Shown in pieces: positions 3,168 through 61,555 of a stretch of DNA of 64,000 nt. The DNA is from Rufibacter sp. DG15C (GTDB taxonomy: Bacteria > Bacteroidota > Bacteroidia > Cytophagales > Hymenobacteraceae), in NCBI RefSeq assembly GCF_001577755.1, contig NZ_CP010776.1:3162001-3226000 (forward strand), given 5' to 3'. The position numbers and the translations under genes were made by a program. The notes beneath the pieces were generated by a model. That model was not told the DNA's origin. It ran no database searches and saw only the letters and a list, made by a program, of their open reading frames with translations. How positions within the stretch are numbered: position 1 is the first letter of the stretch; every line of letters starts with the position of its first letter.

Positions 3168-3205
3168 CGTTTTTAGCCTCGTTTTCAGGAATTAACCCAA
3201 AACCA
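3168..3205. repeat. 38-bp palindromic repeat, degenerate copy 1
   Basis: The copy starts 7 bp after the preceding stop codon. The left arm CGTTTTTAGCCT is intact, and the right arm has decayed to AACCCAAAACCA. Its right end merges into the terminator hairpin that follows. Confidence 0.6.
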
Positions 3206-3236
3206 GAGCCTCTCATGTAGAGGCTCTGGTTTTTTT
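3203..3236 (+). terminator. Intrinsic terminator of the gldFG-lipoprotein unit
   Basis: A perfect 11-bp stem (CCAGAGCCTCT at 3203-3213 with AGAGGCTCTGG at 3219-3229) and a 5-nt loop are followed by seven T residues. This is a strong rho-independent terminator. Confidence 0.93.
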
Positions 3237-3307
3237 ATAAGGACCGGTTTTCAATAGAAATCCACTATCAGAAAATAAATAGGCAGGCTAGCACCACCTT
3301 CCTTATA

Positions 3308-3315
3308 TAGTTTCG
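3308..3315 (+). promoter_or_regulatory. Possible -7 box (TAGTTTCG) for the following lipoprotein gene
   Basis: TAGTTTCG differs by one base from the Bacteroidota -7 consensus TAnnTTTG and lies 47 bp upstream of the start codon. No clear -33 TTG is seen at the usual distance. Confidence 0.35.
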
Positions 3316-3362
3316 TACAACACGGTAAAAGATAATTACCCACCCCCAAATTACCTTCCTGT

Positions 3363-4085
3363 ATGAAGCGTCTATTACTTATTTCCTATATCTTGTGTGT
3401 ATTGCCGTTCTTGGTTTCTTGTGAGAATGAGTTAGTGGCCCCGGCAGGAGCTACCAACGTACAGACCAAAGAGGCGTATGGCGCCTGCAGAACCTACCAA
3501 TACATCTCCAAGACCAGCGACGTGACCTCGTATGGAACTGCCTACAAAGACATCATTCTAGTGGGGTTTAGAGAGGGCATCACGGAACGCGAAAAACAGC
3601 AGATCGTGCGCCAGAGCTCCTTGTACAAAGAGATAGTAGGGGAGGTGGCCTTGGATTCTGGTCCCATCACCTTGGTACAGCTAAAGGCGCGAAGCACTTG
3701 CGCGGACGTGGAGTATTTACGAGCCCAACTGCAGCGCCACCCAGACGTATTGTTTGCAAACCCGGCGTTTAATACCCAAGACAGTGAAATTGCGTGGATA
3801 GGCCTGCCCAATGAGTTTCTGGTATCCATTGAGACCGGCACGCAAGCCCAGTTGGAAGCCCTGGCCGCCAGTACCAATACCCGTTTGGTATTCTCGCTTT
3901 CAGAAGAATTGCATTTAATGTCAGCAGATAAAAACTCGCAAGGCGATGCCCTGGCCATGAGCAACCTGTTCAACCAGCAGGCCTTTGTGATTTCAGCTGA
4001 GCCTAACTTTATTTTTCAGGCCAAGACCAGCGGTACCGGCGAGGCGACCACCCAGACCATGCTCAAAGGAACCAAACAGCGCTAA
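3363..4085 (+). CDS. Lipoprotein with two S8-prodomain-like modules
   Basis: This 240-residue predicted lipoprotein has the lipobox LVSC with cysteine 20. Residues about 60-138 (IILVGFREGITEREKQQIV to LFANPAF) resemble the N-terminal prodomain of subtilisin-family (S8, fervidolysin-like) proteases. Residues about 150-225 look like a second, more diverged module ending in VISAEPNFIFQ. No protease domain (Asp-His-Ser motifs) follows in this gene or its neighbours. The prodomain resemblance is recognised by pattern only; the role could be a protease inhibitor or chaperone, or something unrelated. Confidence 0.6.
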   Translation: MKRLLLISYILCVLPFLVSCENELVAPAGATNVQTKEAYGACRTYQYISKTSDVTSYGTAYKDIILVGFREGITEREKQQIVRQSSLYKEIVGEVALDSGPITLVQLKARSTCADVEYLRAQLQRHPDVLFANPAFNTQDSEIAWIGLPNEFLVSIETGTQAQLEALAASTNTRLVFSLSEELHLMSADKNSQGDALAMSNLFNQQAFVISAEPNFIFQAKTSGTGEATTQTMLKGTKQR

Positions 4086-4113
4086 TCATTCACAAAGCAG
4101 CAAGGGATTTTTC

Positions 4114-4151
4114 CGTTTTTGGCCTGGTTTCCAGAAAATAGGCCAAAAACG
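4114..4151. repeat. 38-bp palindromic repeat, copy 2
   Basis: Both outer arms are intact (CGTTTTTGGCCT and AGGCCAAAAACG); the centre is GGTTTCCAGAAAAT. It lies between the lipoprotein stop and the dnaN promoter. Confidence 0.9.
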
Positions 4152-4206
4152 CCTTTGCATGCAGAACAAACCTGTTTACGGACGTAGGAAAAGAGGCTTT
4201 TTTGTA

Positions 4207-4214
4207 TAACTTTG
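4207..4214 (+). promoter_or_regulatory. -7 promoter box (TAACTTTG) of dnaN
   Basis: TAACTTTG fits the Bacteroidota consensus TAnnTTTG and stands 43 bp before the dnaN start. It also supports using the downstream ATG at 4250, because the longer in-frame extension would begin inside the promoter. Confidence 0.65.
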
Positions 4215-4249
4215 CTTTGTTATTGACCTTTTCCAAACCGACATATAGG

Positions 4250-5374
4250 ATGAAATTCATTGTATCTTCTACGGCGCTTTTAAAGCAGCTTACCAGCATC
4301 AACGGGGTAGTGGCCAACAACCCGGTTGTTCCCATTCTGGAGAACTTCCTGTTCGAGATCAACGATGGTGTTTTGACCATCACCGCCAGTGACTTGGAGA
4401 CATCCATGATCACAGAGATACACGTAGAGGCCCGCGAGAATGGCAGAATCGCCGCTCCGGCCAAGATCCTGATTGACACTCTTAAGAACCTTCCAGACCA
4501 GCCGGTGACCTTCACCATTGACGAGGAGACTTATACCATTGAGATTAGCTCTTCTAACGGCCGCTACAAGCTGTCTGGTGAGAACGCCACAGACTTCCCG
4601 AAGGTACCGGTAGTAAGAGGCGGAACCGCCATTGAGATTCCTTCTAATGTTTTGAGCCGTGCCATCAACAAGACCATCTTCGCGGTAAGCAATGATGAGT
4701 TGAGACCTGCCATGACCGGTATTTTTGTGCAGCTGGGCAGCGACAACATCACGTTTGTAGCCACAGACGGACACCGCTTGTTGCGCTACCGCCGCAAGGA
4801 CGTGAGCAGTGAGAACTCTGCTTCCATCATCATACCTAAAAAAGCCTTTAACCTGCTTAAGTCTACGTTGCCTAGTGAGGCTACGGCGGTAAGAATGGAG
4901 TTCAATACGTCTAACGCGTATTTCAGCTTTGACAACTTAAAGATGATCTGCCGTCTGATTGATGAGCGGTATCCAGATTATGAGAACGTGATTCCGGCGC
5001 AAAACCCTAACAAGTTGAGCATTGATCGGTATGACTTCCTGAGCTCTGTGAAGCGTATCTCCATTTACTCTAACAAAACCACGCACCAGGTTCGTCTGCG
5101 CATTACGGGCAGTGAATTGCAAATCTCTGCTGAAGATTTAGATTTCTCCAACGAGGCCAGCGAGCGTCTGACGTGTCAGTATGACGGCGAGGACATGGAG
5201 ATTGGTTTCAATGCCAAGTTCCTGACAGAGATGCTGAGCAACATGGACTCTGATGAGATCACCCTGGAGCTTTCCACGCCAAACCGCGCCGGTCTTTTGA
5301 TGCCAGCCAACAATGACGACGAGGAGAACATTTTGATGCTGGTAATGCCGGTGATGTTGAATAATTACGTGTAA
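4250..5374 (+). CDS. dnaN: DNA polymerase III beta subunit (sliding clamp)
   Basis: DnaN forms the ring-shaped dimer that tethers DNA polymerase III and other replication and repair proteins to DNA. The 374-residue product begins MKFIVSSTALLKQL and shows the three-fold clamp architecture, including FVATDGHRLLRYR in the central domain and a C-terminus ILMLVMPVMLNNYV matching the family end. The ATG at 4250 is chosen over an upstream in-frame start because the protein then begins as DnaN normally does and the promoter box lies upstream. A terminator follows the gene. No dnaA is nearby. Confidence 0.97.
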   Translation: MKFIVSSTALLKQLTSINGVVANNPVVPILENFLFEINDGVLTITASDLETSMITEIHVEARENGRIAAPAKILIDTLKNLPDQPVTFTIDEETYTIEISSSNGRYKLSGENATDFPKVPVVRGGTAIEIPSNVLSRAINKTIFAVSNDELRPAMTGIFVQLGSDNITFVATDGHRLLRYRRKDVSSENSASIIIPKKAFNLLKSTLPSEATAVRMEFNTSNAYFSFDNLKMICRLIDERYPDYENVIPAQNPNKLSIDRYDFLSSVKRISIYSNKTTHQVRLRITGSELQISAEDLDFSNEASERLTCQYDGEDMEIGFNAKFLTEMLSNMDSDEITLELSTPNRAGLLMPANNDDEENILMLVMPVMLNNYV

Positions 5375-5396
5375 GCAACTTAAGTTTATAACTATA

Positions 5397-5432
5397 AAAG
5401 CCTTCTCTGGAAACAGGGGAGGTTTTCTTTTT
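5397..5432 (+). terminator. Intrinsic terminator of dnaN
   Basis: The stem CCTTCTCTG / CAGGGGAGG (two G-U pairs, GAAA loop) is flanked by AAAG on the left and a T-rich run TTTTCTTTTT on the right. Confidence 0.8.
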
Positions 5433-5438
5433 GTACCT

Positions 5439-5476
5439 CGTTTTTGGCCTGATTTCCGGAAAACAGCCCAAAAACG
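5439..5476. repeat. 38-bp palindromic repeat, copy 3
   Basis: Arms are CGTTTTTGGCCT and AGCCCAAAAACG around GATTTCCGGAAAAC. It sits directly behind the dnaN terminator. Confidence 0.9.
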
Positions 5477-5527
5477 ATTGGCGGGTTTACCAGAGGATAG
5501 GAGGCAGTAGAACTGGGAAAAAGCTAT

Positions 5528-5535
5528 TACCTTTG
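5528..5535 (+). promoter_or_regulatory. -7 promoter box (TACCTTTG) of gldC
   Basis: TACCTTTG followed by CA matches the TAnnTTTG consensus and lies 37 bp upstream of the gldC start. The -33 region has no good TTG. Confidence 0.6.
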
Positions 5536-5572
5536 CAGGAGTGAACCAAAGCGCCTGAGGGGGCTAAGAACC

Positions 5573-5938
5573 ATGAAACAGATGAAAAAATCAGAGATAC
5601 ACTTCAGCATCGCCTTGGATGACCAGCGCGTGCCAGAGGCCATTAGCTGGCGGGCCACCGATGCAGGTGATGACATTCACTTCGCCAAGGCCATCAACAT
5701 TGCCCTATGGGACCGCAATGACAGCGGTACTATGAAGATTGACCTATGGACCAAGGACATGCCCGTAGATGAGATGAAGTACTTCTACATTGACACCCTG
5801 GGTGCCATGGCCCAAAGCCTGGAGGGCGCTACCAATGACAAGGTAATGGCCGAGAAGATGCGCTCCCTTTGCCAGGAGTTGATGAAACACGTAGAAGACC
5901 AGCAGAGGCTGAACGCTCAGAACAATCCAACCAAGTAA
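5573..5938 (+). CDS. gldC: Gliding motility protein GldC
   Basis: This 121-residue cytoplasmic protein matches GldC, a small protein needed for efficient gliding in Flavobacterium and conserved in gliding Bacteroidota. Recognisable parts are KKSEIHFSIALDDQRVPEAI at the N-terminus and ALWDRNDSGTMKIDLWTKDM in the middle. An alternative ATG at 5582 would start at MKKSEIHF, as in many homologues; the purine-rich GAGGGGGCTAAGA fits either. It stands alone between a promoter and a strong bidirectional hairpin. Its biochemical role is unknown. Confidence 0.9.
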   Translation: MKQMKKSEIHFSIALDDQRVPEAISWRATDAGDDIHFAKAINIALWDRNDSGTMKIDLWTKDMPVDEMKYFYIDTLGAMAQSLEGATNDKVMAEKMRSLCQELMKHVEDQQRLNAQNNPTK

Positions 5939-5949
5939 TACAAGAAACT

Positions 5950-5998
5950 CATATAAACAGAAAAGCCGCTCAACTAGAGCGGCTTTTCTGTTTATATG
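5950..5998. terminator. Long bidirectional terminator hairpin
   Basis: A perfect 21-bp inverted repeat (5950-5970 with 5978-5998, 7-nt loop) lies between convergent genes. On both strands the GC-rich core AAAAGCCGCT/AGCGGCTTTT is followed by a T-rich stretch, so it can end transcription from either side. Confidence 0.9.
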
Positions 5999-6011
5999 AA
6001 ATATCTGGAGA

Positions 6012-6491: not shown

Positions 6492-6687
6492 AGCTAATCA
6501 GTTTTAGTGATAATAACACAAATCCCGTGCCATCTTTATCAGAACAAAGGCGGCAGAAAAAAAGTTGTCATATCTATTAAAAAGTTAAACGAGTCTAGTG
6601 CCTAAGAGTTATGTGACTGGGTCAAGAAACCTATTGCACAGGCCTTTTGGGGGCAGTGAGGTAACTTAATAATTCCCTGAAAATCAA

Positions 6688-7299: not shown

Positions 7300-7337
7300 C
7301 GTTTTTGGCCTGTTTTCTAGAAATAAGACCAAAAAAG
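7300..7337. repeat. 38-bp palindromic repeat, copy 4
   Basis: Arms are CGTTTTTGGCCT and AGACCAAAAAAG around GTTTTCTAGAAATA. It lies just downstream of the thioesterase stop, between two minus-strand genes. Confidence 0.85.
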
Positions 7338-7798: not shown

Positions 7799-7836
7799 CA
7801 TTTTTGGCCTATTTTCTGGGATAGAGGCCGAAAACG
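7799..7836. repeat. 38-bp palindromic repeat, copy 5
   Basis: Arms are CATTTTTGGCCT and AGGCCGAAAACG around ATTTTCTGGGATAG. It lies upstream of the thioesterase gene and downstream of the hemL terminator. Confidence 0.85.
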
Positions 7837-9290: not shown

Positions 9291-10976
9291 TTAAAGGACT
9301 GGATTCACTATTAATAAGCGGCCGTTGTCAATTTTGAGAATAGGCACGTATTGATTGTCTTGTGTAGGTTGCCCGTTTTGGTTTTGGTAGCTCAGGCCCT
9401 GGTAAAAAAGGCTAGGTAGCATGCCGCCTAAACGAAGGGGAGAAGCATAGCCATTCGTGCTCAACTGATGGCCAAGGTAATACACTAACTCAAAGCCGCT
9501 ATAGGTAAACGCCGAAGGGGGCAGATTGTGCTTGCGCGTGTAGTTTCTTCTAAATGCCTGCACCGCCGGGTCGTCTAGATCCACGAACTTAGGCGAATGA
9601 AAGTAGGCTTCCAGAAAGTCAAGCTGAGAGAACGTGATTTGAGAAAACTCCAACCAACTGGCCGGAACCAGCAAAGGCACCTTAGAAGCTTTCTGCTCTA
9701 GGTTACTCACCGCGCTTGCCGCTACGTTGGCCGCCGAGGACTGAATTACCAGCACCCCTATATCTCTCAGGTTAATGGAACCAAGTACGCCCCCTACAGA
9801 ACCGCTGGTCTTAGAGTTTATCTTCTGGAAGACCTGTACCTTGCCGCCTAGAGCCATGTACGTTCTCCTGAAATTCCCCGCAAACGTGGTGTCCTCTTTG
9901 CCACTGTCATAAATCACCGCGGCGGTTTTCTTAGAGAAGTTTTGGTACGCATGCACCGCGGCGCGTTGTCCTTGGGTAGCTGTAGAAGCCTCTAGTAAAA
10001 CCAAGTATGGATTGCCTTTGGTCATGTCTAGGTCATCAGAGAATGGATTGACCATGTTGAGGCCGCGTTGCTGGGCCAGTTTGGCCGCCTGTACGCTGGT
10101 GCTTTTGAAAATGGGTCCCACCACGGCGTCCATGCTAGAAAGCTCAGGCAACTGAAGCACCTGCCGAACCTGAGCTGAATCAGTGCCCGAGTCATATGGG
10201 AACAGGTTCACTTTAATGCCTTGGCGTTGCAAAGAGTCCTGAGCAGCTTTCATACCCGCATAGAAATCGGTGATGAACAGGTTTTTCTTCTCTAAACGCG
10301 CGCCAGAATCTGTCACGTTAAAGGGCAGAAGCACCGCCAGGTTGTACTCGTTCTTTTTAAGCGAGGTAGTGCGCGTGAGGTAGCTTCTATCCAGATTGAA
10401 TTTACGAACCAAATCCTCTAACTGGGTTCTGTCTTGAGTCGTGTACCATCCGCTGACCAACCGGTCAACATAGGCCTTACCCAAAGTAGCATCGTCTGGA
10501 TACTGGCGCACCAAATACTGGAACGTGGACTTGTCTGGCAGTTGCAACAGGTAATGACGCTTCATGGCGTTTGCCTCTTCCTGTAAGCCAGAGTTTTGCA
10601 GCGCATTGAGAGTTTGCAACGCTTTTTGATACTCCTTCTTCTCAAACTGCACCTGCGCCAACAAATACTGCCCATCTGACAAACCGCCCCAGGTAGGGAA
10701 CTGCATCTGCAATTGCGTCAACATCTGCTCTGCCTCTTTCCATTTCTTCTGCTTGGCCGCGGCTACACTATATAAGAATGCCGCATCTGGCGCGTATTGG
10801 CTACTCGCCGAAATGGAGGTGAGCGGCAACAGTTCTTCCATGGCCAGTGCGTACTTCTGCTGGTCTAAAAGAAAGCGGCCGTTGTTAAAGCGCGTAGACT
10901 GTTCTGCATTGTTCTGGGCCTGCACCTGCCACCCGAAGGTGAGAAACATGGCCGCCAAGACAAGTCGTTTTTTCAT
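9291..10976 (-). CDS. Secreted TPR and type-1 periplasmic-binding-fold protein
   Basis: This 561-residue protein has a signal peptide (MKKRLVLAAMFLTFGWQVQA), then TPR-like helices (about residues 25-190, with FLYSVAAAKQKKWKEAEQML), and then a periplasmic-binding type-1 fold (about 215-530; NLAVLLPFNVTDSG, DAVVGPIFKSTSVQAAKLA). This order resembles LpoA-type penicillin-binding-protein activators and LivK-like proteins with TPRs, but transport partners are absent, so a regulatory or sensory periplasmic role is more likely (inference). Its ATG lies inside a palindromic repeat, 27 bp after the guaA stop, so it probably belongs to the guaA transcript. Confidence 0.85.
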   Translation of the reverse strand: MKKRLVLAAMFLTFGWQVQAQNNAEQSTRFNNGRFLLDQQKYALAMEELLPLTSISASSQYAPDAAFLYSVAAAKQKKWKEAEQMLTQLQMQFPTWGGLSDGQYLLAQVQFEKKEYQKALQTLNALQNSGLQEEANAMKRHYLLQLPDKSTFQYLVRQYPDDATLGKAYVDRLVSGWYTTQDRTQLEDLVRKFNLDRSYLTRTTSLKKNEYNLAVLLPFNVTDSGARLEKKNLFITDFYAGMKAAQDSLQRQGIKVNLFPYDSGTDSAQVRQVLQLPELSSMDAVVGPIFKSTSVQAAKLAQQRGLNMVNPFSDDLDMTKGNPYLVLLEASTATQGQRAAVHAYQNFSKKTAAVIYDSGKEDTTFAGNFRRTYMALGGKVQVFQKINSKTSGSVGGVLGSINLRDIGVLVIQSSAANVAASAVSNLEQKASKVPLLVPASWLEFSQITFSQLDFLEAYFHSPKFVDLDDPAVQAFRRNYTRKHNLPPSAFTYSGFELVYYLGHQLSTNGYASPLRLGGMLPSLFYQGLSYQNQNGQPTQDNQYVPILKIDNGRLLIVNPVL

Positions 10977-11003
10977 TGTTTTCCGGAAATTAGGCCAAAA
11001 ACG
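10966..11003. repeat. 38-bp palindromic repeat, copy 6, overlapping a start codon
   Basis: The right arm AGGCCAAAAACG is intact and abuts the guaA stop codon. In the left arm the usual GGCC is replaced by TCAT, which on the minus strand reads ATGA and supplies the start codon of the downstream gene. Confidence 0.85.
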
Positions 11004-13578: not shown

Positions 13579-13616
13579 CGTTTTTAGCTTGGTTTCCAGA
13601 AAATAGACGAAAAACG
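13579..13616. repeat. 38-bp palindromic repeat, copy 7
   Basis: Arms are CGTTTTTAGCTT and AGACGAAAAACG around GGTTTCCAGAAAAT. It ends 2 bp before the -33 TTG of the SRP RNA promoter. Confidence 0.88.
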
Positions 13617-13618: not shown

Positions 13619-13648
13619 TTGTTCTGCTAGAAAGTGTTCGTATCTTTG
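13619..13648 (+). promoter_or_regulatory. Promoter of the SRP RNA gene (TTG-N19-TATCTTTG)
   Basis: TTG at 13619-13621, 19 bp, then TATCTTTG at 13641-13648: both elements and the spacing fit the Bacteroidota sigma-A consensus. It is the best promoter in the window. Confidence 0.82.
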
Positions 13649-13651
13649 CAA

Positions 13652-13752
13652 CGGCAAATCGGTACGGCCAGCTCCTACTGAACTCCCCCAGGCCCGGAAG
13701 GGAGCAAGGGTAAGTGGTTGAGCGGCGCGATACTCGATTTGCCGCTTTTTTT
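13652..13752 (+). ncRNA. ffs: Signal recognition particle RNA (small bacterial type)
   Basis: This is the 4.5S-like RNA that pairs with Ffh to target nascent membrane proteins. The ends pair as a closing stem (CGGCAAATCG at 13652-13661 with CGATTTGCCG at 13735-13744). The apical part has the conserved SRP core CCCGGAAGGGAGCAAGGG, including the GGAA tetraloop. A T-run (13746-13752) follows the closing stem as terminator. The protein partner Ffh is encoded 13 kb away. Confidence 0.93.
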
Positions 13753-16499: not shown

Positions 16500-16537
16500 C
16501 GTTTTTGGCCTATTTTCCAGAAAACAGTCCAAAAACA
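16500..16537. repeat. 38-bp palindromic repeat, copy 8
   Basis: It begins 3 bp after the glycosyltransferase gene ends. Arms are CGTTTTTGGCCT and AGTCCAAAAACA around ATTTTCCAGAAAAC. Confidence 0.9.
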
Positions 16538-18830: not shown

Positions 18831-18874
18831 AGTACCATAAGTAATACGGGCCTTTAGGTAATCCATTAAAATGC

Positions 18875-18911
18875 CGTTTTGGGCTATTTTCCAGAAAGCA
18901 GGCTAAAAACG
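18875..18911. repeat. 37-bp palindromic repeat, copy 9
   Basis: The only copy one base short: left arm CGTTTTGGGCT (four T), right arm AGGCTAAAAACG. It lies between the aminotransferase and dehydrogenase genes. Confidence 0.82.
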
Positions 18912-20751: not shown

Positions 20752-21813
20752 ATGTCTGCCCGCCGTCCGGTTCTTCTCTATTTCTATCCTGGCCTTTCCT
20801 CGTTTGTGGTGAAGGACTTGCAGATCATGGAGAAGGCGTACGAGGTGCGGCATATAGGATTTCTACCGGCCAAAAAGTGGCAGACGCCTTTGGTTTGTTT
20901 GAGGCAGTTTTTCTTTTTGTTGCGGCATATCTGGACAGCAGGGAAACTGGTCTGCATGTTTGCCGGTTACCATTCCTGGTTTCCGGCTCTTTTCGGGAAA
21001 ATAGCCCAAAAGCCGATCTTGATAGTGGCCGGCGGCACTGACTGTGTTTCCTTTCCCAGCATTGGCTACGGTTGTTTCGCTAAACCCATTTTAGGCAAAT
21101 TCACACGGTGGTCGTACCAGTTGGCCAGCCACATTGCACCGGTGCATGAGAAGCTGGTGTGGCAGGACTATACCTATCAGCCTGATGATTTTCCGCACCA
21201 AGGGTTTCGGTTCCATTGCCCCAGTTTAAAGACGCCGCACACGGTAGTATTCAATGGGTATGACGCCAGCTTCTGGAGACCAGATGCTACTGTTCAGCGA
21301 CAACCTAATTCTTTCCTGACGGTCTGCGCCGGTTTGCACATGCGCTTTACTCAGCGCTTGAAAGGGGTAGACTTAATTTTGGAGGCGGCCCGGCAGTTAC
21401 CTGAAGCCAGTTTTACCATTGTGGGTGCGCCAGCCGGATTTGCCTTTCCTGACCAGCCTGCAAACGTAAAGCTATTGCCTAAAATGCCGCTGGCTGATTT
21501 AAAGGCGGTGTACAGTGCGCATACCTTCTACATGCAACTTTCCATGTCTGAAGGCTTCCCGAATGCCTTAAGCGAAAGCATGCTTTGTGGTTGCGTGCCT
21601 GTGGTGAGCAATGTTTCTTCTATGCCGGAAATTGTGGGAGATGCTGGGTTTGTGCTGGAGAAAAGAGATAGCAATCTATTAGTGAAAGTACTACAGAAAG
21701 CAATGGCTTCTGATGCTTCTACTTTAGGGAATATGGCCCGGGAAAAAATATCTAATCAATACCCAGAAGCAAGACGCGAGCAGGAATTACTTCAATTGTT
21801 ACAAAGGTTATAA
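20752..21813 (+). CDS. Glycosyltransferase family 4/1
   Basis: A GT-B-fold enzyme of 353 residues. The C-terminal half has the nucleotide-sugar binding pattern FLTVCAGLHMRFTQRLKGVD, GVDLILEAARQLPEASFTIVG and SMSEGFPNALSESMLCGCVPV, the ESMLCGCVPV segment holding the family EX7E glutamates. ATG at 20752 is preferred to a TTG two codons upstream. It probably acts in surface polysaccharide assembly with the neighbouring flippase. Residues about 76-88 are encoded by a sequence resembling the 38-bp repeat. Confidence 0.88.
   Translation: MSARRPVLLYFYPGLSSFVVKDLQIMEKAYEVRHIGFLPAKKWQTPLVCLRQFFFLLRHIWTAGKLVCMFAGYHSWFPALFGKIAQKPILIVAGGTDCVSFPSIGYGCFAKPILGKFTRWSYQLASHIAPVHEKLVWQDYTYQPDDFPHQGFRFHCPSLKTPHTVVFNGYDASFWRPDATVQRQPNSFLTVCAGLHMRFTQRLKGVDLILEAARQLPEASFTIVGAPAGFAFPDQPANVKLLPKMPLADLKAVYSAHTFYMQLSMSEGFPNALSESMLCGCVPVVSNVSSMPEIVGDAGFVLEKRDSNLLVKVLQKAMASDASTLGNMAREKISNQYPEARREQELLQLLQRL
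20978..21015. repeat. Possible decayed 38-bp repeat inside a coding region
   Basis: The stretch GGTTTCCGGCTCTTTTCGGG followed by AAAATAGCCCAAAAG resembles the repeat with several changes and a one-base shift. It is fully translated in the glycosyltransferase frame. It could be chance similarity. Confidence 0.3.
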
Positions 21814-23356: not shown

Positions 23357-23394
23357 CGTTTTTAGGCTATTTTCTTGAAACTAGGCCAAAAACG
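23357..23394. repeat. 38-bp palindromic repeat, copy 10
   Basis: Arms are CGTTTTTAGGCT and TAGGCCAAAAACG around ATTTTCTTGAAAC. It lies 14 bp upstream of the flippase start. Confidence 0.88.
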
Positions 23395-24832: not shown

Positions 24833-24870
24833 CGTTTTAGAGCTACTTTCTGGTAAACAGCCCGAAAACG
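24833..24870. repeat. 38-bp palindromic repeat, copy 11
   Basis: A diverged copy: CGTTTTAGAGCT and AGCCCGAAAACG around ACTTTCTGGTAAAC. It lies between two minus-strand genes. Confidence 0.8.
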
Positions 24871-26236: not shown

Positions 26237-26274
26237 CGTTTTTGGATTGTTTTCCGGGAAAAAGGCCAAAAACG
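26237..26274. repeat. 38-bp palindromic repeat, copy 12
   Basis: Arms are CGTTTTTGGATT and AGGCCAAAAACG around GTTTTCCGGGAAAA. It lies in the divergent gap between a glycosyltransferase gene and ffh. Confidence 0.88.
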
Positions 26275-27781: not shown

Positions 27782-27820
27782 AAGAAGCCCGGACCTGTAG
27801 GTTCGGGCTTCTTCGTTTTT
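27782..27820 (+). terminator. Intrinsic terminator of ffh
   Basis: Stem AAGAAGCCCGGACC / GGTTCGGGCTTCTT with a TGTA loop is followed by CGTTTTT. That T-run is the left arm of repeat copy 13. Confidence 0.88.
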
Positions 27821-27851
27821 GGCCTTTTTTGGTGAAATAAGACCAAAAACG
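27814..27851. repeat. 38-bp palindromic repeat, copy 13
   Basis: Arms are CGTTTTTGGCCT and AGACCAAAAACG around TTTTTGGTGAAATA. It begins on the base after the ffh terminator stem. Confidence 0.88.
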
Positions 27852-29034: not shown

Positions 29035-29072
29035 CGTTTTTGGCCTGATTTCCGCAAAACAACCCAAAAACG
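29035..29072. repeat. 38-bp palindromic repeat, copy 14
   Basis: Arms are CGTTTTTGGCCT and AACCCAAAAACG around GATTTCCGCAAAAC. It lies 29 bp upstream of the DinB-like start. Confidence 0.9.
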
Positions 29073-32062: not shown

Positions 32063-32100
32063 TGTTTTTGGCCTGTTTTCTAAGAATTAGGCCAAAAATG
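32063..32100. repeat. 38-bp palindromic repeat, copy 15
   Basis: Arms are TGTTTTTGGCCT and AGGCCAAAAATG: both ends carry the same outermost change (C to T, and C to T at the mirror position on the other strand is not seen). The centre is GTTTTCTAAGAATT. It separates the receiver gene from the HEAT-protein gene. Confidence 0.88.
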
Positions 32101-38544: not shown

Positions 38545-38582
38545 CGTTTTTAGGCTGTTTTCCAGAAATTAGGCCAAAAACG
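38545..38582. repeat. 38-bp palindromic repeat, copy 16
   Basis: Arms are CGTTTTTAGGCT and AGGCCAAAAACG around GTTTTCCAGAAATT. Confidence 0.9.
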
Positions 38583-39408: not shown

Positions 39409-39446
39409 CGTTTTTGGCCTGTTTTCAGAAAAACAAGCCAAAAACG
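39409..39446. repeat. 38-bp palindromic repeat, copy 17
   Basis: Arms are CGTTTTTGGCCT and AAGCCAAAAACG around GTTTTCAGAAAAAC. It starts 2 bp after the methyltransferase gene ends. Confidence 0.9.
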
Positions 39447-43171: not shown

Positions 43172-43209
43172 CGTTTTTGGCCTCTTTTGGAGGAATCAGG
43201 TAAAAAACG
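43172..43209. repeat. 38-bp palindromic repeat, copy 18
   Basis: A diverged copy: CGTTTTTGGCCT and AGGTAAAAAACG around CTTTTGGAGGAATC. It is 6 bp upstream of the lipoprotein start, in its 5' untranslated position. Confidence 0.85.
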
Positions 43210-44359: not shown

Positions 44360-44397
44360 TGTTTTTGGCCTGTTTTCTGGGAATTGAGTCAAAAACG
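44360..44397. repeat. 38-bp palindromic repeat, copy 19
   Basis: Arms are TGTTTTTGGCCT and GAGTCAAAAACG around GTTTTCTGGGAATT. It lies 8 bp beyond the stop of the OmpA/TPR lipoprotein gene. Confidence 0.87.
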
Positions 44398-48040: not shown

Positions 48041-48078
48041 CGTTTTTGGCCTGATTTCCGGAAAACACCCCAAAAACG
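48041..48078. repeat. 38-bp palindromic repeat, copy 20
   Basis: Arms are CGTTTTTGGCCT and ACCCCAAAAACG around GATTTCCGGAAAAC. It touches the stop of the next gene (1 bp away). Confidence 0.9.
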
Positions 48079-48079: not shown

Positions 48080-49714
48080 CTAACGCACCAGCGTGACGGG
48101 CCCGCTTTTGCTGAGCCGCTGACCGTTCACGTCTACGGCCTCAAACCGGTACAAGTAGGTGCCGGCCGGGGCTGGTTTGCCTTGGTAGGTGCCGTCCCAG
48201 CCCTGCCTAAAATCCTTGGTCTCAAAGACCACCTGGCCCCATCGGTTGAGCACCTGCAACTCAAACTGACTGGCAAACTTGCCTATGGCCTTGAACGTGT
48301 CATTGAGGCCGTCCTGGTTTGGCGTAAACGCATTTGGGAAGTAGAACTGAAAGGCCTGTTCTACGCTGGCCGTGTTAGAGTAACTTTGGTAAGTTGCGTT
48401 TCTGGCCTTAGAAAGAATACGGTAATTAAGGCGCTGGAAACGGTCCTGGGGGTGCACATCTACATAGCCCTGACCGGTGACTAGCGTGCTCCAGTAAACT
48501 GAGCCTTGCTCATCCAGCAGTTCTAAGGTCTGGCTATCAACGCCCTCCGGAAAACCTTCATACGCCGACCAACTCAATTTTACCTGACCATTCTGTTGCC
48601 GCTCGGCGGTAAGGATGGCCGGGCATGCGGTGTTACTTCTGGCAGAGGTGAGGCTACAAGAGTCTGCGTAGGTGGTTTGATAGCAGGGCCTGGCGGTTAA
48701 GGTTGGCAAAGTGGCGTCTACCGCATTTTTGGCTTGTTTTTCAGAAAGTAGACCAAAAACACCGTTGTTCAGGTTTCGGTAAATGCTTTGCTCCTTAAAC
48801 GTTTCCTGGGCAGGGATAAAGGATTCTACCTGTACCTGGTTCTGCAGATTGAAGCTCACCAGCAGGAAAGGCGCCGCCGGTGGGGTGGTACCGGTTGTCA
48901 CGATTTGCACGGGCAGGGAGATGCTTTGGCTTCCATTATTCAGCAAGGCCACCAATTGGTAAGTATAGGTTCTTCCGCAGGCCACCTGGGCGTCTGTGAA
49001 AGTAGTTTGAGTGCCTAGAAGATTTTGATAGAGTTGCCCCCCGCGCAGTAACTGGTAGTTAACCACGCTGCCAGGGCTAGGATTGGCCGACCAGGTGATT
49101 ATATTTTGGCGGTCTCCGGCAGTGACTTGCAATCCTTGCGCACAGACCATGTTGGAGATAATGTCCTCCTGCCCGGTGCACACATTAATCACACGCACCC
49201 TAAAACAACCAGAGACAGATGGTAGAGACATAGTATGGGTGCTCTGCCCGAAAGGGACATTGGCTAAAGTAGTAACAGGAGAGAAGGTTCCGGTTGAAGA
49301 GGAGGCTTGTTCAACCATCAAATCATTAATGGCGCTGACTTGGATTTGCAATTGAATGCCGTTGGCCTGATGCGTTAACTTTTGAACGATGGGAGGCGAA
49401 GAAGGCACAGCAGCTTTGACCACAAACGTGCGTTCACAGAGCGTGCTGCTGACGTTCTTGAGCTGGGTGACGGTATAGATGCCGGGCGCAGTGAAGGTAA
49501 AAGACGTTTGCTGGGCATTGAAGTCCAGGCCGTTGCTCTTGTCAAAATCGTAGTACTCGGTGCCGCCCGTGGTATTGTCTTTAAACGTAATGCGCTGGCC
49601 TACGCAAAAAGTCTCTACTACCTGGTTCTGTTCATTGTAGGCTAAAAAGCACTGAGCCTGGGAGTTGAACGCCCAGCCACACACCATGAACAAAATCAGG
49701 AGAAGGTTTCTCAC
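48080..49714 (-). CDS. Secreted protein with gliding-associated C-terminal (T9SS type B) domain
   Basis: The 544-residue protein has a signal peptide (MRNLLLILFMVCGWAFNSQA), a PKD-like segment (GTEYYDFDKSNG, FTAPGIYTVTQLKN), Fn3-like domains (GDRQNIITWSANPSPGS) and the C-terminal gliding-associated sorting domain (FYFPNAFTPNQDGLNDTF, LQVLNRWGQVVFETKDF, GTYLYRFEAVD) that sends cargo to the type IX secretion system. The start is GTG, overlapping the hutH stop in a GTGA motif, so translation is coupled. Residues about 318-331 are encoded by an in-frame copy of the 38-bp repeat. Confidence 0.9.
   Translation of the reverse strand: MRNLLLILFMVCGWAFNSQAQCFLAYNEQNQVVETFCVGQRITFKDNTTGGTEYYDFDKSNGLDFNAQQTSFTFTAPGIYTVTQLKNVSSTLCERTFVVKAAVPSSPPIVQKLTHQANGIQLQIQVSAINDLMVEQASSSTGTFSPVTTLANVPFGQSTHTMSLPSVSGCFRVRVINVCTGQEDIISNMVCAQGLQVTAGDRQNIITWSANPSPGSVVNYQLLRGGQLYQNLLGTQTTFTDAQVACGRTYTYQLVALLNNGSQSISLPVQIVTTGTTPPAAPFLLVSFNLQNQVQVESFIPAQETFKEQSIYRNLNNGVFGLLSEKQAKNAVDATLPTLTARPCYQTTYADSCSLTSARSNTACPAILTAERQQNGQVKLSWSAYEGFPEGVDSQTLELLDEQGSVYWSTLVTGQGYVDVHPQDRFQRLNYRILSKARNATYQSYSNTASVEQAFQFYFPNAFTPNQDGLNDTFKAIGKFASQFELQVLNRWGQVVFETKDFRQGWDGTYQGKPAPAGTYLYRFEAVDVNGQRLSKSGPVTLVR
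48724..48761. repeat. 38-bp palindromic repeat, copy 21, inside a coding region
   Basis: CATTTTTGGCTT and AGACCAAAAACA frame the centre GTTTTTCAGAAAGT, 38 bp in all. On the minus strand it is translated without a stop as VFGLLSEKQAKNA within the gliding-associated protein. Confidence 0.85.
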
Positions 49715-52677: not shown

Positions 52678-52715
52678 CGTTTTTGACCTATTTTCCGGAA
52701 AACAAGCCAAAAACG
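52678..52715. repeat. 38-bp palindromic repeat, copy 22
   Basis: Arms are CGTTTTTGACCT and AAGCCAAAAACG around ATTTTCCGGAAAAC. It is in a divergent gap. Confidence 0.9.
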
Positions 52716-53586: not shown

Positions 53587-53624
53587 CGTTTTTGCCCTAT
53601 TTTCTGGTAAATAGGGCAAAAACG
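53587..53624. repeat. 38-bp palindromic repeat, copy 23
   Basis: Arms are CGTTTTTGCCCT and AGGGCAAAAACG around ATTTTCTGGTAAAT: the G-to-C change on the left is matched by C-to-G on the right, keeping the palindrome. It starts 3 bp after the glycosyltransferase gene. Confidence 0.92.
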
Positions 53625-55303: not shown

Positions 55304-55341
55304 TGTTTTTAGCCTGATTTCTGGCAAATAGGCCAAAAACG
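55304..55341. repeat. 38-bp palindromic repeat, copy 24
   Basis: Arms are TGTTTTTAGCCT and AGGCCAAAAACG around GATTTCTGGCAAAT. It lies about where the -33 element of the neighbouring promoter would be. Confidence 0.88.
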
Positions 55342-57312: not shown

Positions 57313-57350
57313 CGTTTTTAGCTTGATTTCTGGAAAATAAGCCAAAAACG
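57313..57350. repeat. 38-bp palindromic repeat, copy 25
   Basis: Arms are CGTTTTTAGCTT and AAGCCAAAAACG around GATTTCTGGAAAAT: GCTT pairs with AAGC, a matched change relative to GCCT/AGGC. Confidence 0.92.
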
Positions 57351-57857: not shown

Positions 57858-58787
57858 TTATCCTAACAGGTGTAAGGCAGATTCCTGGTCTTGGTGCAGT
57901 TGCTGGGTGAGCGCTTCCAATCCGTCAAACTTCAATTCTGGCCGAATGTAGCCGATGAACAGAAGCGTAATGTCCTGACCGTACAAGTCCCCATTGAAAT
58001 CAAAGATATGCACTTCAATGGTCTGCTTACCGCTGTCATCCACGGTAGGGTTCACGCCAATGTTGAGCATGCCCTTATACTGGCCTTGCGGCGTATTGAC
58101 TAAAACGGCATACACGCCCTGCGCGGGTATAAGCTTGAGCGCATCTTTTACCTCCAGGTTGGCAGTCGGGTAGCCGATAGTGCGGCCTAGCTGTTTGCCT
58201 TTTACCACGGTGCCTGTTATCGTATAAGGTCGGCCCAAGTACTTGTGAGCGGTTTCTACCTCACCTTTCTCAAGGGCGGTTCTTATTTTGCTGGAGCTTA
58301 CGCCTACTTCTTCAATGTCCTGGCGAGGAATCTCCTCAACCACGAAGCCGTAGCGCGCCGCGTTTTGCTGGAGGTAGTCAAAGTTGCCTTCGCGGTTTCT
58401 ACCAAAATGGTGGTCATACCCAATCACCAGTTTCTTGGTGTGCAGGGTGTTGAGCAGAATCTGCTGGATGTATTCTTCTGAGGAAAGCTGCGCAAACTCT
58501 TTGGTGAACGGCAGAATCAAGAGATAATCCACGCCGTAATTCTCCAGCGCCTCTATGCGTTCCTCTATGGTAGAAAGTAACCTAAGCGAAGTGTCATTTG
58601 GATTGAGTACCGTGCGCGGGTGCGGCCAGTAGGTGAGCACCACGCTTTGGCCGTTGTGTTGGCGGGCAGTTTCTGTCAGACGCGACAAGATTTTCTGATG
58701 ACCCACGTGCACCCCGTCAAAGGTACCCGACGTCACCACTGCCTGCGGCAGTTCTGGAAAATCTTTCAGCTCCCTAATGACAATCAT
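57858..58787 (-). CDS. ribF: Bifunctional riboflavin kinase/FAD synthetase
   Basis: RibF makes FMN and then FAD from riboflavin. The 309-residue protein has the N-terminal FMN adenylyltransferase motif SGTFDGVHVGHQKIL (about residues 21-35), YDHHFGRNREG and SSSKIRTALEKG, and the C-terminal flavokinase domain with KQLGRTIGYPTANLEV. It starts within the truB stop (ATGA, 4-bp overlap), in the usual truB-ribF coupling. Confidence 0.96.
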   Translation of the reverse strand: MIVIRELKDFPELPQAVVTSGTFDGVHVGHQKILSRLTETARQHNGQSVVLTYWPHPRTVLNPNDTSLRLLSTIEERIEALENYGVDYLLILPFTKEFAQLSSEEYIQQILLNTLHTKKLVIGYDHHFGRNREGNFDYLQQNAARYGFVVEEIPRQDIEEVGVSSSKIRTALEKGEVETAHKYLGRPYTITGTVVKGKQLGRTIGYPTANLEVKDALKLIPAQGVYAVLVNTPQGQYKGMLNIGVNPTVDDSGKQTIEVHIFDFNGDLYGQDITLLFIGYIRPELKFDGLEALTQQLHQDQESALHLLG

Positions 58788-59476
58788 GCCGGCCCTAGTT
58801 GTTTCTCGCGGAGTTCTTGTAATTGGTCTAAAGACATGGCATCCTCTATGCGGTATTCCCCAATACGGGTACGCACCAGTTCAGACAGATACGCGCCGCA
58901 ACCAAGCTTTACGCCAAAGTCACGGGCCAGGCTCCTGATGTACGTGCCTTTTGAACATACCACTCTAAATGACACTTGGTTTCCCTCAATGGCAGTTAAG
59001 TCAAAGGCTTTAATGGTGATGCGCTTGGACTTGATTTCAGCCTCGCCGCCGCGACGGGCAATGTTGTACGCGCGCTCGCCATTCACCTTCACCGCCGAAT
59101 AAATAGGCGGCGTCTGGTCAATCTCACCCATGAAGGAGGCGGCTGCCTCTTGGAGCATTTCTTCTGTTAAATGATCAATGGGAGAGGTGCTGTCTACTTC
59201 GGTCTCCAGGTCAAAAGAAGGCGTGGTATGACCTAGGATGAATTTGCCGGTGTACTCCTTTTCCTGCGCCTGAATCTCTTCTATGCGCTTGGTGAATTTG
59301 CCCGTGCACATGATGAGCAAGCCTGTCGCCAATGGATCCAAGGTTCCCGCGTGGCCAATCTTTTTAATCTTGAGGGCGAACTTGGTTTTCTTGACCAGGT
59401 CAAAAGAAGTCCAGGTCAGCGGTTTGTTGAAAAGCAGGATGGCTCCCGCTTCAAAATCATACGGTGATTCTTGCAT
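58784..59476 (-). CDS. truB: tRNA pseudouridine-55 synthase
   Basis: TruB makes pseudouridine 55 in the T-loop of tRNAs. The 230-residue protein has ILLFNKPLTWTSFDLV, the catalytic aspartate in GHAGTLDPLATGLLIM (about Asp47), PPIYSAVKVNGERAY and SKGTYIRSLARDFG. It overlaps uppP by 1 base and ribF by 4 bases. Confidence 0.96.
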   Translation of the reverse strand: MQESPYDFEAGAILLFNKPLTWTSFDLVKKTKFALKIKKIGHAGTLDPLATGLLIMCTGKFTKRIEEIQAQEKEYTGKFILGHTTPSFDLETEVDSTSPIDHLTEEMLQEAAASFMGEIDQTPPIYSAVKVNGERAYNIARRGGEAEIKSKRITIKAFDLTAIEGNQVSFRVVCSKGTYIRSLARDFGVKLGCGAYLSELVRTRIGEYRIEDAMSLDQLQELREKQLGPA

Positions 59477-60318
59477 TATACCAACTGTATGTCAATGCCC
59501 AAGGCCAGGAGCAACAAAATGATCAAGCCTACTAAAATGCGGTAATAACCAAACAACTTAAACCCGTACTTGGTCAAGAAGTCCACGAAGAACCTGATAG
59601 CCGCCATGGCCACCACAAACGCAACCACATTGCCAATTATCAAAACTTGCCAGTCCTGGGTATTGATGGCGGATAGGGCCAATTGAAACTTAGGGACGTT
59701 AAAAGAGACGATGTCAGAGAGTTCCAGCTTCAGGAAGTCTGTTAGAACTGAGTAGGTTGCAGCCGCCAGCATGGTGGGCACTGCCATAAAAAAAGAGAAC
59801 TCAGCGGCGGTTTTACGGGTCATGTTCTGTGTCAAGCCGCCAATAATACTAGCCGCCGACCTTGACACGCCCGGAATCATGGCAATGCACTGGAAAAACC
59901 CTATGATAAAGGCATTCTTGTAACTTGGTGTAGTAACCGGATTTTCTACGTCTTTGAACCATTTGTCCACGAACACCAGAATGATTCCGCCTAACACCAA
60001 ACTGATGGCCACCACCTCTACGCGCTCCAGCATGGCGTCTACCACGTCCTTTAAGACAAAGCCAATCAAGAGCGCGGGCACCACTGCCACGAACAGCTTT
60101 TTATAGAAGTCAAAAGAGTTGATCCAACGCTTCCAATACAACACCACCACAGACAAGATGGCGCCAAATTGTATAGTTACCGTGAACATCTTAGTAAACT
60201 CAAAGGCACTGATGCCCATGAGGCTGGAGGCGATGACCATGTGTCCGGTAGAGGACACTGGTAAAAACTCGGTTAATCCCTCAATAATGGCCAGAATGAT
60301 TGCTTGCCAAATATCCAT
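59476..60318 (-). CDS. uppP: Undecaprenyl-diphosphatase (BacA type)
   Basis: UppP removes a phosphate from undecaprenyl pyrophosphate, recycling the lipid carrier for peptidoglycan and polysaccharides. The 280-residue membrane protein has about eight helices, the active-site segment [15 protein letters not shown] (residues 14-28) and [14 protein letters not shown]. It starts right next to the DUF3098 gene stop. Confidence 0.95.
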
Positions 60319-60549
60319 CTAGACGTCTTTGCGGGGTTTGGCCAGGATAGCGTAAAACTGGAACAGGAAGCCTGCCACCAACACAATTGGGCCTAGGGTC
60401 AAGCCTAGAAAACCGTAGCCATACGGCTCTGAGTCTAGTGACATCAAAATGAAACCAACCGACATAATCACTAAACCAATGATCATGAGCATAAAATTGC
60501 GGCGCCCAAAGGCCGAAGAAGGGGACGTGTTGTTGGTGTTATTTTCCAT
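60319..60549 (-). CDS. DUF3098 family membrane protein
   Basis: The 76-residue protein has two membrane helices (NFMLMIIGLVIMSVGFILM and LGLTLGPIVLVAGFLFQFYA) joined by a short loop with SLDSEPYGYG, matching the Bacteroidota DUF3098 family. It is characteristically placed between ftsX and uppP. Its function is unknown; a role in envelope or division is suggested only by position. Confidence 0.88.
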   Translation of the reverse strand: MENNTNNTSPSSAFGRRNFMLMIIGLVIMSVGFILMSLDSEPYGYGFLGLTLGPIVLVAGFLFQFYAILAKPRKDV

Positions 60550-60562
60550 GAGGAAGAATATT

Positions 60563-61462
60563 TTAATAAAGATCGTCTAGGGAAGAGCGAAGGTACTTAC
60601 GCACCGCGCGGTAAGAACTGAAAAAGCCAATCACACTGCCCAGCACCAATAAGGTAGCCATGAGAATGAGGATCTGCTCATCGTTTCTAAGTAGGTAAAG
60701 CTCGGCAATTTGGCTATAGGCGTATTGCAACAAACCCATTAGCAGGGCAGAGGCAATTAAACCGCTAATCAAGCCTTGAATGGTGGCTCGGTTCAAATAA
60801 GGTCTTTGAATGAAGAAGGAAGTAGCGCCTACCAACTGCATACTCCTTATCAGGAAACGCTGCGAAAAGAGCGCCAACTTGATGGTATTGTTAATTAAAA
60901 TCATGACCACCAACACCAGAATGGCCGCAAAGGAAAGCAAGACAATGCTCACCTTCTGTAGGTTTTCATTGATGGAGTTAATAAGGCTTTCTACATAGCC
61001 CACTTCATACACCCCAACCGTATTCTGCAAGTCCTCTTGAATTTTCTTGAGTTGAGCCGAGGTGGCATATTCTGGGTTGATCCGCAGGATAAAGGCATCT
61101 CTCAATGGATTTTCGCCTAGGAAGGTTAGGAAATCCTCTCCGCTTTCGTCAATGAATTCGCGGGCCCCATCTTCCTTAGACATGTAGGTTACCTGCGGTT
61201 TACCGTTGTCTAAGGCTATAAATTCTTTGCGGCTGAGGGTGTTTTTGAGTTTTTCAATCTCAAGCGGGGTAAGGTCACGCTCCAGATACACCTGCACCTC
61301 CATGTTCTCTTTTACAAGGTTGAAAATCTCTTTGGCGTGAATGAGCAAAACTCCAAACAGGCCAATGACAAACAACGCCAGCGTGATGCTGAAGACTACC
61401 ATGGCGTGCGGGTAAGCGCCCAGTTTTTTCTTTTTGGTATGTTGAAGATGTTTTGCAGCCAT
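60563..61462 (-). CDS. ftsX: Cell division permease FtsX
   Basis: FtsX is the membrane partner of FtsE. The 299-residue protein (ATG at 61462, MAAKHLQHTKKK) has one N-terminal helix (VVFSITLALFVIGLFGVLLI), an extracytoplasmic domain with VQVYLERDLTPLEIEKLKNT, and three C-terminal helices typical of the FtsX fold. It begins the ftsX-DUF3098-uppP-truB-ribF group. FtsE is about 45 kb away at 14.9 kb. Confidence 0.92.
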   Translation of the reverse strand: MAAKHLQHTKKKKLGAYPHAMVVFSITLALFVIGLFGVLLIHAKEIFNLVKENMEVQVYLERDLTPLEIEKLKNTLSRKEFIALDNGKPQVTYMSKEDGAREFIDESGEDFLTFLGENPLRDAFILRINPEYATSAQLKKIQEDLQNTVGVYEVGYVESLINSINENLQKVSIVLLSFAAILVLVVMILINNTIKLALFSQRFLIRSMQLVGATSFFIQRPYLNRATIQGLISGLIASALLMGLLQYAYSQIAELYLLRNDEQILILMATLLVLGSVIGFFSSYRAVRKYLRSSLDDLY

Positions 61463-61517
61463 AAGGGAGTATCCCGACAAAAATAGCAATTATTTCAAAC
61501 TTAGCCGGAGCGCTGTC

Positions 61518-61555
61518 CGTTTTTGGACCGTTTTCTGGAAAATAGGCCAAAAACG
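61518..61555. repeat. 38-bp palindromic repeat, copy 26
   Basis: Arms are CGTTTTTGGACC and AGGCCAAAAACG around GTTTTCTGGAAAAT. It is 3 bp beyond the tamB stop. Confidence 0.9.

What the first reader, a model, noticed from the sequence alone, without database searches (positions are those of the whole stretch)
3168..61555. A 38-bp palindrome repeated 26 times across 64 kb
Seen: a unit with outer arms CGTTTTTGGCC and GGCCAAAAACG around a TTTTCCGGAAAA-like centre occurs 26 times, 25 of them exactly 38 bp and one 37 bp (18875). Copies start at 3168, 4114, 5439, 7300, 7799, 10966, 13579, 16500, 18875, 23357, 24833, 26237, 27814, 29035, 32063, 38545, 39409, 43172, 44360, 48041, 48724, 52678, 53587, 55304, 57313 and 61518. 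They occupy tandem, convergent and divergent gaps, often within 1-10 bp of a stop codon. Such density and fixed length suggest a REP-like family or the binding site of an abundant DNA-binding protein. No RAYT transposase is in the window. Whether it is described elsewhere I cannot check.
Basis: partly seen in the sequence, partly recalled or inferred. Interest (0 to 1): 0.88.

Follow-up and report, generated by a model that had tools for sequence, protein, structure and literature searches.

The report
Genus-wide 38-bp DNA recognition code
A 38-base mirror-symmetric DNA site sits between genes about once every 2.5 kb in one bacterial genus, keeps its places from species to species with local "dialects", and looks like a landing site for a still unknown DNA-binding protein rather than a mobile repeat or an RNA hairpin.

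Summary
The palindromes are real: all 26 listed copies, plus one weak in-gene match. A 21% sample of the chromosome holds 342 copies, about 1,640 per genome, against none in reversed sequence. The frame GTTT-N9-TTT-N4-AAA-N9-AAAC occurs 186-1,561 times in each of 16 genomes of the genus (Rufibacter, inferred). 134 other genomes of the family have 0-3, and 394 other genomes of the phylum have 0-2 of a close variant.

It does not behave like a REP: places are inherited, longer target duplications are not seen, islands have few copies, and this genome has no Y1/RAYT gene. It is mostly not an RNA hairpin: within genomes the arms pair no better than shuffled arms, and G-U is not commoner than A-C. 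Length is rigid and lone half-sites are rare. Frame bases 4-6 show 0 substitutions in 144 ortholog comparisons; other bases follow species dialects.

Best reading: a double-stranded, two-fold-symmetric site of an unidentified protein acting chromosome-wide. A DNA-uptake-sequence-like drive is the main rival. About 16% of copies are near-perfect, consistent with template switching, and some cap intrinsic terminators. The binder was not found.

The parts
3168..3205 (.). 38-bp palindrome copy
   Evidence: PWM score 37.7; orthologous copy in sister genome G013
4114..4151 (.). 38-bp palindrome copy
   Evidence: PWM 59.3; ortholog in G013
5439..5476 (.). 38-bp palindrome copy
   Evidence: PWM 61.0; ortholog in G013
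7300..7337 (.). 38-bp palindrome copy
   Evidence: PWM 49.5; no counterpart in G013, where the gap differs by about 1.3 kb
7799..7836 (.). 38-bp palindrome copy
   Evidence: PWM 46.0; ortholog in G013
10966..11003 (.). 38-bp palindrome copy
   Evidence: PWM 44.9; ortholog in G013
13579..13616 (.). 38-bp palindrome copy
   Evidence: PWM 46.8; ortholog in G013
16500..16537 (.). 38-bp palindrome copy
   Evidence: PWM 54.9; ortholog in G013
18874..18911 (.). palindrome copy, 37 bp (one T missing in the left arm)
   Evidence: PWM 46.7; orthologous gap A filled in 10 of 11 species
20977..21014 (.). weak palindrome-like match inside a glycosyltransferase gene; possibly coding coincidence
   Evidence: PWM 29.9; at the same codon in 13 of 14 species, encoded residues also look conserved
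23357..23394 (.). 38-bp palindrome copy
   Evidence: PWM 52.3; gap C filled in 16 of 16 species
24833..24870 (.). 38-bp palindrome copy
   Evidence: PWM 37.1; gap D filled in 14 of 16 species, mostly near-perfect arms with species-specific bases
26237..26274 (.). 38-bp palindrome copy upstream of ffh
   Evidence: PWM 50.0; gap E filled in 16 of 16 species
27814..27851 (.). 38-bp palindrome copy downstream of ffh
   Evidence: PWM 41.1; gap F filled in 16 of 16 species but over 1 kb from ffh in six
29035..29072 (.). 38-bp palindrome copy
   Evidence: PWM 54.9; gap H filled in 14 of 16 species
32063..32100 (.). 38-bp palindrome copy
   Evidence: PWM 50.8; no counterpart in G013, flanks not aligned
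38545..38582 (.). 38-bp palindrome copy
   Evidence: PWM 58.0; script found no counterpart, paired by hand with a nearby G013 copy
39409..39446 (.). 38-bp palindrome copy
   Evidence: PWM 57.6; ortholog in G013
43172..43209 (.). 38-bp palindrome copy
   Evidence: PWM 44.3; ortholog in G013
44360..44397 (.). 38-bp palindrome copy
   Evidence: PWM 46.6; ortholog in G013
48041..48078 (.). 38-bp palindrome copy
   Evidence: PWM 55.9; ortholog in G013
48724..48761 (.). 38-bp palindrome copy inside an open reading frame (48080-49714, CHU_C type IX secretion signal protein, residues about 317-330)
   Evidence: PWM 45.2; reading frame and aligned proteins in G013, G006, G012; CHU_C domain
52678..52715 (.). 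38-bp palindrome copy
   Evidence: PWM 57.7; ortholog in G013
53587..53624 (.). 38-bp palindrome copy
   Evidence: PWM 47.2; ortholog in G013
55304..55341 (.). 38-bp palindrome copy
   Evidence: PWM 48.5; ortholog in G013
57313..57350 (.). 38-bp palindrome copy
   Evidence: PWM 55.7; ortholog in G013
61518..61555 (.). 38-bp palindrome copy
   Evidence: PWM 52.7; ortholog in G013

Best explanation
Each copy is a double-stranded DNA recognition site, read as two facing half-sites (YCGTTTTTGGCCTGTTTTC and its mirror) whose phase is fixed by the 38-bp length, by a two-fold-symmetric protein (dimer or pair of dimers) present in this genus. Some 1,500-3,500 sites per chromosome fill the intergenic space that promoters and coding sequence leave free, are inherited by position, and are re-tuned half-site by half-site when the protein's preference drifts, giving species dialects. 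The role is chromosome-wide (nucleoid organisation or a mark of core DNA) rather than local regulation. As a side effect, replication template switching sometimes makes a copy and its flanks perfectly complementary; copies of that sort next to gene ends can serve as intrinsic terminators. Shown: abundance, rigidity, constraint, inheritance, dialects, weak arm coupling within genomes. Inferred: the protein, its symmetry and the chromosome-scale role.
For: Rigid length, 331 of 345 pairs at 38 bp. Lone half-sites few: at score 14 or more, G000 667 in copies vs 16 outside (null 7), G005 266 vs 14 (null 1), G012 321 vs 6 (null 6). Within G000 arms mismatch as often as column-shuffled arms (4.98 vs 4.91 of 19 pairs, 342 copies), likewise in three more species apart from pair 7/32. 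In 200 codirectional copies read along transcription, 201 G-U and 243 A-C mismatches. In 24 ortholog pairs bases 4-6 changed 0 of 144 times, bases 10, 13, 19 in 42-46%; 60-bp flanks are 77% identical. Same gap filled in 100 of 105 species-by-gap tests (70 of 75 without the coding gap B and the loose gap F); uvrB 16 of 16, ruvC 15 of 16. Dialect arms in G005 combine as chance predicts (DD 66, Dr 80, rr 30; expected 64, 84, 28). Frame seen in 16 of 16 congeners and only at chance level in 134 family and 394 phylum genomes. Few copies in island stretches.
Against: No binder identified: HU and ParB are not expanded, other families were not searched. Across species the arms do covary at orthologous sites (71% vs 67% paired, z 6.5, 100 sequences), and 144 of 908 copies are near-perfect with complementary flanks, as a hairpin would be. 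Asymmetric copies show slightly fewer complementary pairs than chance (7,810 vs 8,008, z -4.4; G005 pair 6 z -6.1) and an orientation model gains 0.2-1.6 bits per copy in three of four species, so exact two-fold symmetry is a simplification. Pair 7/32 covaries within three of four species. Positions look like leftover space and spacing is not regular, so no specific task is shown.
Confidence: 0.55

Rival explanations
1. DNA-uptake-sequence-like drive: the sites are favoured because DNA carrying them is preferentially taken up or recombined, so they accumulate in permissive core DNA with no local function.
For: Thousands of copies, dialects per species, core DNA rather than islands, permissive gaps, association of some with terminators: the passages seen in PMC3630211 describe all of these for Neisseria DUS. 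Placement is close to leftover space, and constraint is uniform over sites.
Against: The DUS given in those passages is a 10-12-mer and 'palindrom' does not occur in that paper's text; here the unit is a rigid 38-bp palindrome and lone half-sites are rare. Only 7 of 342 copies lie well inside called genes. Competence genes and natural transformation were not tested.
Confidence: 0.2
2. RNA or single-strand hairpin family, for example bidirectional terminators or mRNA-end hairpins.
For: Near-perfect copies are commoner than whole-arm shuffles give (18 vs 3.7, 1 vs 0, 29 vs 5.4, 21 vs 8.2); 51% of 144 near-perfect copies have 4 or more further complementary flank bases vs 3% of 600 imperfect ones; they are followed by more T (3.29 vs 1.99 of 8) and lie more in convergent gaps (36% vs 22%). 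At uvrB and ruvC the site caps terminator-like stems in many species, also some with imperfect arms. Arms covary across species.
Against: Most copies do not pair better than shuffles and keep the frame as strictly; no G-U excess; terminator-like hairpins are as common at gene ends with and without a copy (34% vs 30%, 53% vs 47%); T tracts lie at the wrong end of the stem for a terminator; the dsDNA frame extends into a coding gene.
Confidence: 0.12
3. REP/REPIN- or MITE-like mobile repeat, active or recently active.
For: Copy number, intergenic bias and intragenomic subfamilies; 15 of 16 genus genomes carry 1-6 Y1_Tnp genes.
Against: This genome has none of them; one of the RAYT-size Y1 genes looked at (L132) has no copy within 1.2 kb; places are shared by 25 of 27 window sites with the sister species and across the genus; direct flank repeats of 5 bp or more occur 1 time vs 0.7 expected, though 2-bp (23 vs 14) and 4-bp (6 vs 2) are in slight excess; islands have few copies; end tags GTAG/CGTC absent.
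Confidence: 0.08

Closest known systems
Neisseriaceae DNA uptake sequence (DUS) dialects, PMC3630211 (passages seen)
   Same: Thousands of copies, species dialects that follow core-genome phylogeny, permissive core positions, some in terminators.
   Different: DUS there is a 10-12-mer used singly or as inverted pairs; here a rigid 38-bp palindrome with rare lone halves, nearly all intergenic; uptake not tested.
REP/REPIN and GTAG/CGTC-tagged palindromes, PMC3733652 and PMC8049555 (passages seen)
   Same: Short intergenic palindromes, mostly downstream of genes, some inside genes; CGTC type reported in Bacteroidetes.
   Different: Stems of 8-9 bp with GTAG or CGTC tags; here 17-bp arms, CGTTTT ends, inherited places, no RAYT in this genome, frame fixed while arms do not pair better than shuffled in most copies.
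Noc/ParB-type palindromic sites (NBS, parS; recalled)
   Same: Two-fold-symmetric chromosomal sites read by one protein.
   Different: Recalled as 14-16 bp and far fewer; spacing TTT-N4-AAA differs; ParB has one copy in each genus genome.
Rickettsia palindromic elements (recalled; also named in PMC3733652)
   Same: Palindromes can sit in frame within coding genes, as at 48724.
   Different: In-gene copies are the exception here (7 of 342).

Membership tests
REP / REPIN-RAYT | GTAG or CGTC tag at one end | tested here: not met
   Base 4 is T in 99% of arms; both ends read CGTTTT
REP / REPIN-RAYT | Associated Y1/RAYT transposase | tested here: not met
   0 in the window's genome; weak ones in the 15 other genus genomes, one RAYT-size locus viewed without an adjacent copy
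REP / REPIN-RAYT | Hairpin selected (arms compensate) | tested here: inconclusive
   Not within genomes for most copies; near-perfect minority and cross-species covariation exist
MITE | Target-site duplication | tested here: inconclusive
   None of 5 bp or more beyond chance; slight excess at 2 and 4 bp
DNA uptake sequence | Thousands of copies with species dialects in core DNA | tested here: met
DNA uptake sequence | Short unit recognised on its own | tested here: not met
   Lone half-sites rare
DNA uptake sequence | Promotes uptake or transformation | not testable with these tools
   Needs experiments; competence genes not searched
Intrinsic terminator | GC stem directly followed by a U tract | tested here: not met
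   Unit ends in AAAAACG; 16% near-perfect copies are partly embedded in terminator-like stems
Rfam RNA families | Match at gathering score | tested here: not met
   Only an SRP RNA in the window
Noc/ParB site | Extra ParB paralog in the genus | tested here: not met
   One HTH_ParB match in each of 16 genomes
HU/IHF-type nucleoid protein site | Extra HU-family paralog in the genus | tested here: not met
   1-2 PF00216 matches per genome, as in relatives; other HU-like families not searched

The most novel reading that the evidence does not exclude
A chromosome-wide self-identity code: a rigid, two-fold-symmetric 38-bp duplex mark, about 1.5% of the genome, that arose at the root of one genus, is read by a dedicated genus-specific protein, and has been re-tuned at thousands of fixed positions half-site by half-site as that protein's specificity drifted, so that each species' core DNA carries its own dialect and newly acquired islands are largely unmarked.
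Probability: 0.25. Interest if true: 0.92.

Novelty: new variant of a known kind. Interest (0 to 1): 0.75.

Why it matters
If a protein reads these sites, one genus offers a natural experiment in how a DNA-binding protein and thousands of its sites change specificity together, site by site, with 16 species to compare. It would also be a large, undescribed layer of chromosome organisation or self-recognition in Bacteroidota. The near-perfect copies with outward complementary tracts are a ready data set for replication template switching and for the birth of terminators.

Tried and rejected
RNA hairpin by covariation and G-U bias: not supported for most copies. A first impression that terminators abut the sites and borrow their T tract shrank on control: adjacent stems on sides facing gene ends are 11-17% against 3-7% shuffled, but stems 29-40 bp away are also 7-14%. 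A special 3'-end role: placement is near what leftover space predicts. Regular spacing: CV 0.75 vs 0.77 by chance, long gaps slightly rarer than chance. Hidden orientation: weak. HU and ParB as expanded binders: no. RAYT association: no in this genome. Viral contigs (exact pattern) and plasmids: nothing. Sister genera: four 15-kb stretches gave no site and 1-2 other palindromes each. A low-occupancy stretch that is not an island: L012 (1 of 3 eligible gaps, core-looking genes); and island stretch L013 still holds two copies.

Rows dropped or chosen: the ortholog comparison used 24 pairs; 27814 was left out for a register shift, 38545 was paired by hand, 7300 and 32063 have no counterpart. Both members had to be detected as sites, which favours conserved frames. 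Gene calls are from my own simple caller, not a published one. The four-species tests used all stretches that I held that gave a hit (864, 420, 420, 440 kb).
Full report
Observation. All 26 coordinates carry the unit. A position matrix from 25 copies recovers all 26, adds a weak 27th at 20977 inside a gene, and gives no hit in 10 Markov-random sequences. The window is part of a single 4,143,738-bp contig. In 864 kb of it (window plus 40 spaced stretches) 342 copies score above 25 and the reversed sequence gives 0 at the lower cut of 18; this extrapolates to about 1,640 copies, or about 1.5% of the chromosome, spread over all 41 pieces (2 to 14 per 20-kb stretch).

Who has it. The frame GTTTN9TTTN4AAAN9AAAC is found 186-1,561 times in each of 16 genus genomes (reversed-pattern control 0-2) and 0-3 times in each of 134 other family genomes (control 0-2), a sample drawn from a larger group. 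A close variant is found 592 times here and 0-2 times in each of 394 other genomes of the phylum (control 0-3). Density is 28-62 copies per 100 kb in the species sampled, from 32 kb upwards each, which scales to roughly 1,500-3,500 per genome. Viral contigs (exact pattern) and plasmid records gave none.

Where it sits. With my own gene caller (700 genes), copies occupy 66 of 94 convergent, 185 of 474 codirectional and 33 of 91 divergent gaps; 19 of 20 convergent gaps of 120-200 bp, 2 of 147 codirectional gaps under 45 bp, and 0 of 13 divergent gaps under 120 bp (1 of 9 divergent gaps of 60-120 bp at the looser cut). Seven of 342 lie at least 90 bp inside a called gene. Placement in codirectional and convergent gaps is close to uniform once promoter space is barred, and spacing between sites is not clearly regular. 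Stretches with few copies for their gaps include ones with phage-type integrase, DNA methylase, type I restriction genes or metal-efflux genes and the accessory-looking first part of L041 (judged by eye); but L013 still holds two copies and the low stretch L012 looks like core DNA.

What is constrained. Of 345 inverted half-site pairs 331 have total length 38, 10 have 39, 4 have 37, and lone half-sites are few, though above background in two of three species. Copies disagree freely at bases 8, 10, 11, 13, 14 and 19 but hardly at 4-6, 15 and 16. Against the sister genome G013, 25 of 27 window sites have a counterpart (24 by script, one by hand). In 24 pairs bases 4-6 changed 0 of 144 times, bases 10, 13 and 19 in 42-46%, and generous alignments of 60-bp flanks are 77% identical. 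In seven gaps around ffh, 100 of 105 species-by-gap cases have a site; one of these gaps is inside a gene and in another the site is over 1 kb from ffh in six species; without these two it is 70 of 75. Downstream of uvrB, ruvC and ribC it is present near the stop in 16, 15 and 13 of 16 species, a further ribC case lying 168 bp away and one of the 13 lacking the outer frame. One copy (48724) is in frame within a CHU_C protein and its counterparts in three other species lie at the matching codons (place worked out by hand).

Duplex or hairpin. In G000 the arms mismatch as often as column-shuffled arms (4.98 vs 4.91 of 19 pairs). In four species pairs 1-18 show little excess pairing, except pair 7/32 (z 2.6, 4.1, 0.8, 4.3), and the centre pair is anti-paired (z -3.2 to -7.9). 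Read along transcription, G-U (201) is not commoner than A-C (243) in 200 copies. Among copies with three or more other mismatches, total pairing is slightly below chance (z -4.4) and G005 pair 6 strongly so; an orientation model gains 0.22, -0.03, 1.58 and 0.60 bits per copy over shuffled arms. Arms of the local dialect combine as expected in G005 (66/80/30 vs 64/84/28); in G012 and G000 both-dialect copies are in excess, which in G000 vanishes without the near-perfect copies, while G005 and G012 then show an excess of mixed copies. I read this as half-sites evolving largely on their own on a duplex, with small departures unexplained.

The near-perfect minority. Copies with perfect arms exceed whole-arm shuffles (18 vs 3.7, 1 vs 0.0, 29 vs 5.4, 21 vs 8.2), including arms unlike the consensus. 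Of 908 copies, 144 have at most one arm mismatch; 51% of these have four or more further complementary flank bases, against 19% of 164 intermediate and 3% of 600 imperfect copies. They are followed by more T and lie more in convergent gaps. At uvrB and ruvC the sites cap terminator-like stems whose sequence differs between species, in some with imperfect arms. Template switching, which can create and repair perfect stems (PMC8794818, abstract seen; PMC3820800, start of abstract seen), explains perfect arms with outward tracts; selection for termination may keep them. It may also explain part of the arm covariation across species (71% vs 67%, z 6.5), the rest following from symmetric dialects.

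What it is not, and what it may be. Terminator-like hairpins are as frequent at gene ends with or without a site. It lacks GTAG/CGTC tags, a Y1 gene in this genome and target duplications of 5 bp or more. HU and ParB are not expanded in the genus. The closest pattern in print that I saw is the DNA uptake sequence of Neisseriaceae, with thousands of copies, dialects, permissive core positions and terminator pairs (passages of PMC3630211). The rigid 38-bp palindrome with rare lone halves sets this apart, and uptake could not be tested. My searches for a description of this repeat listed nothing that names it; only listings were seen, and subscription papers are mostly not held.

Verdict. A chromosome-wide duplex site for an unidentified protein is the best-supported reading (0.55); uptake-like drive 0.2, hairpin or terminator family 0.12, mobile REP-like repeat 0.08.

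Noticed in passing
window 13645-13748 (+): Small SRP RNA (Rfam RF04183) directly after the palindrome at 13579-13616.
   Followed up: no
window 48724-48761 within 48080-49714: A palindrome copy translated in frame within a type IX secretion-signal (CHU_C) protein; matching codons in three other species also carry a copy.
   Followed up: partly
window 20977-21014: Weak in-gene palindrome match at the same codon in 13 of 14 species; could be protein conservation alone.
   Followed up: partly
L138, L144, L146, L113, L120, L125: A second interspersed sequence, CGTAGGAGCTGCGCACACTACGAGGTC, seen downstream of uvrB in several species; 7 exact copies in 6 fetched loci.
   Followed up: partly
centre bases 19-20 of the unit, all four sampled species: The central dinucleotide is rarely self-complementary (CA/TG 54-71% in two species, CC/GG 50% in another); reason unknown.
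   Followed up: partly
downstream of ruvC in L155, L161, L163: Short tandem runs resembling TTAGTGATTAGTTTTTAGT next to the palindrome in some species.
   Followed up: no
G008, G015: The two genus genomes with the fewest exact frame matches (186 and 269) may be losing the code or have a laxer one.
   Followed up: no
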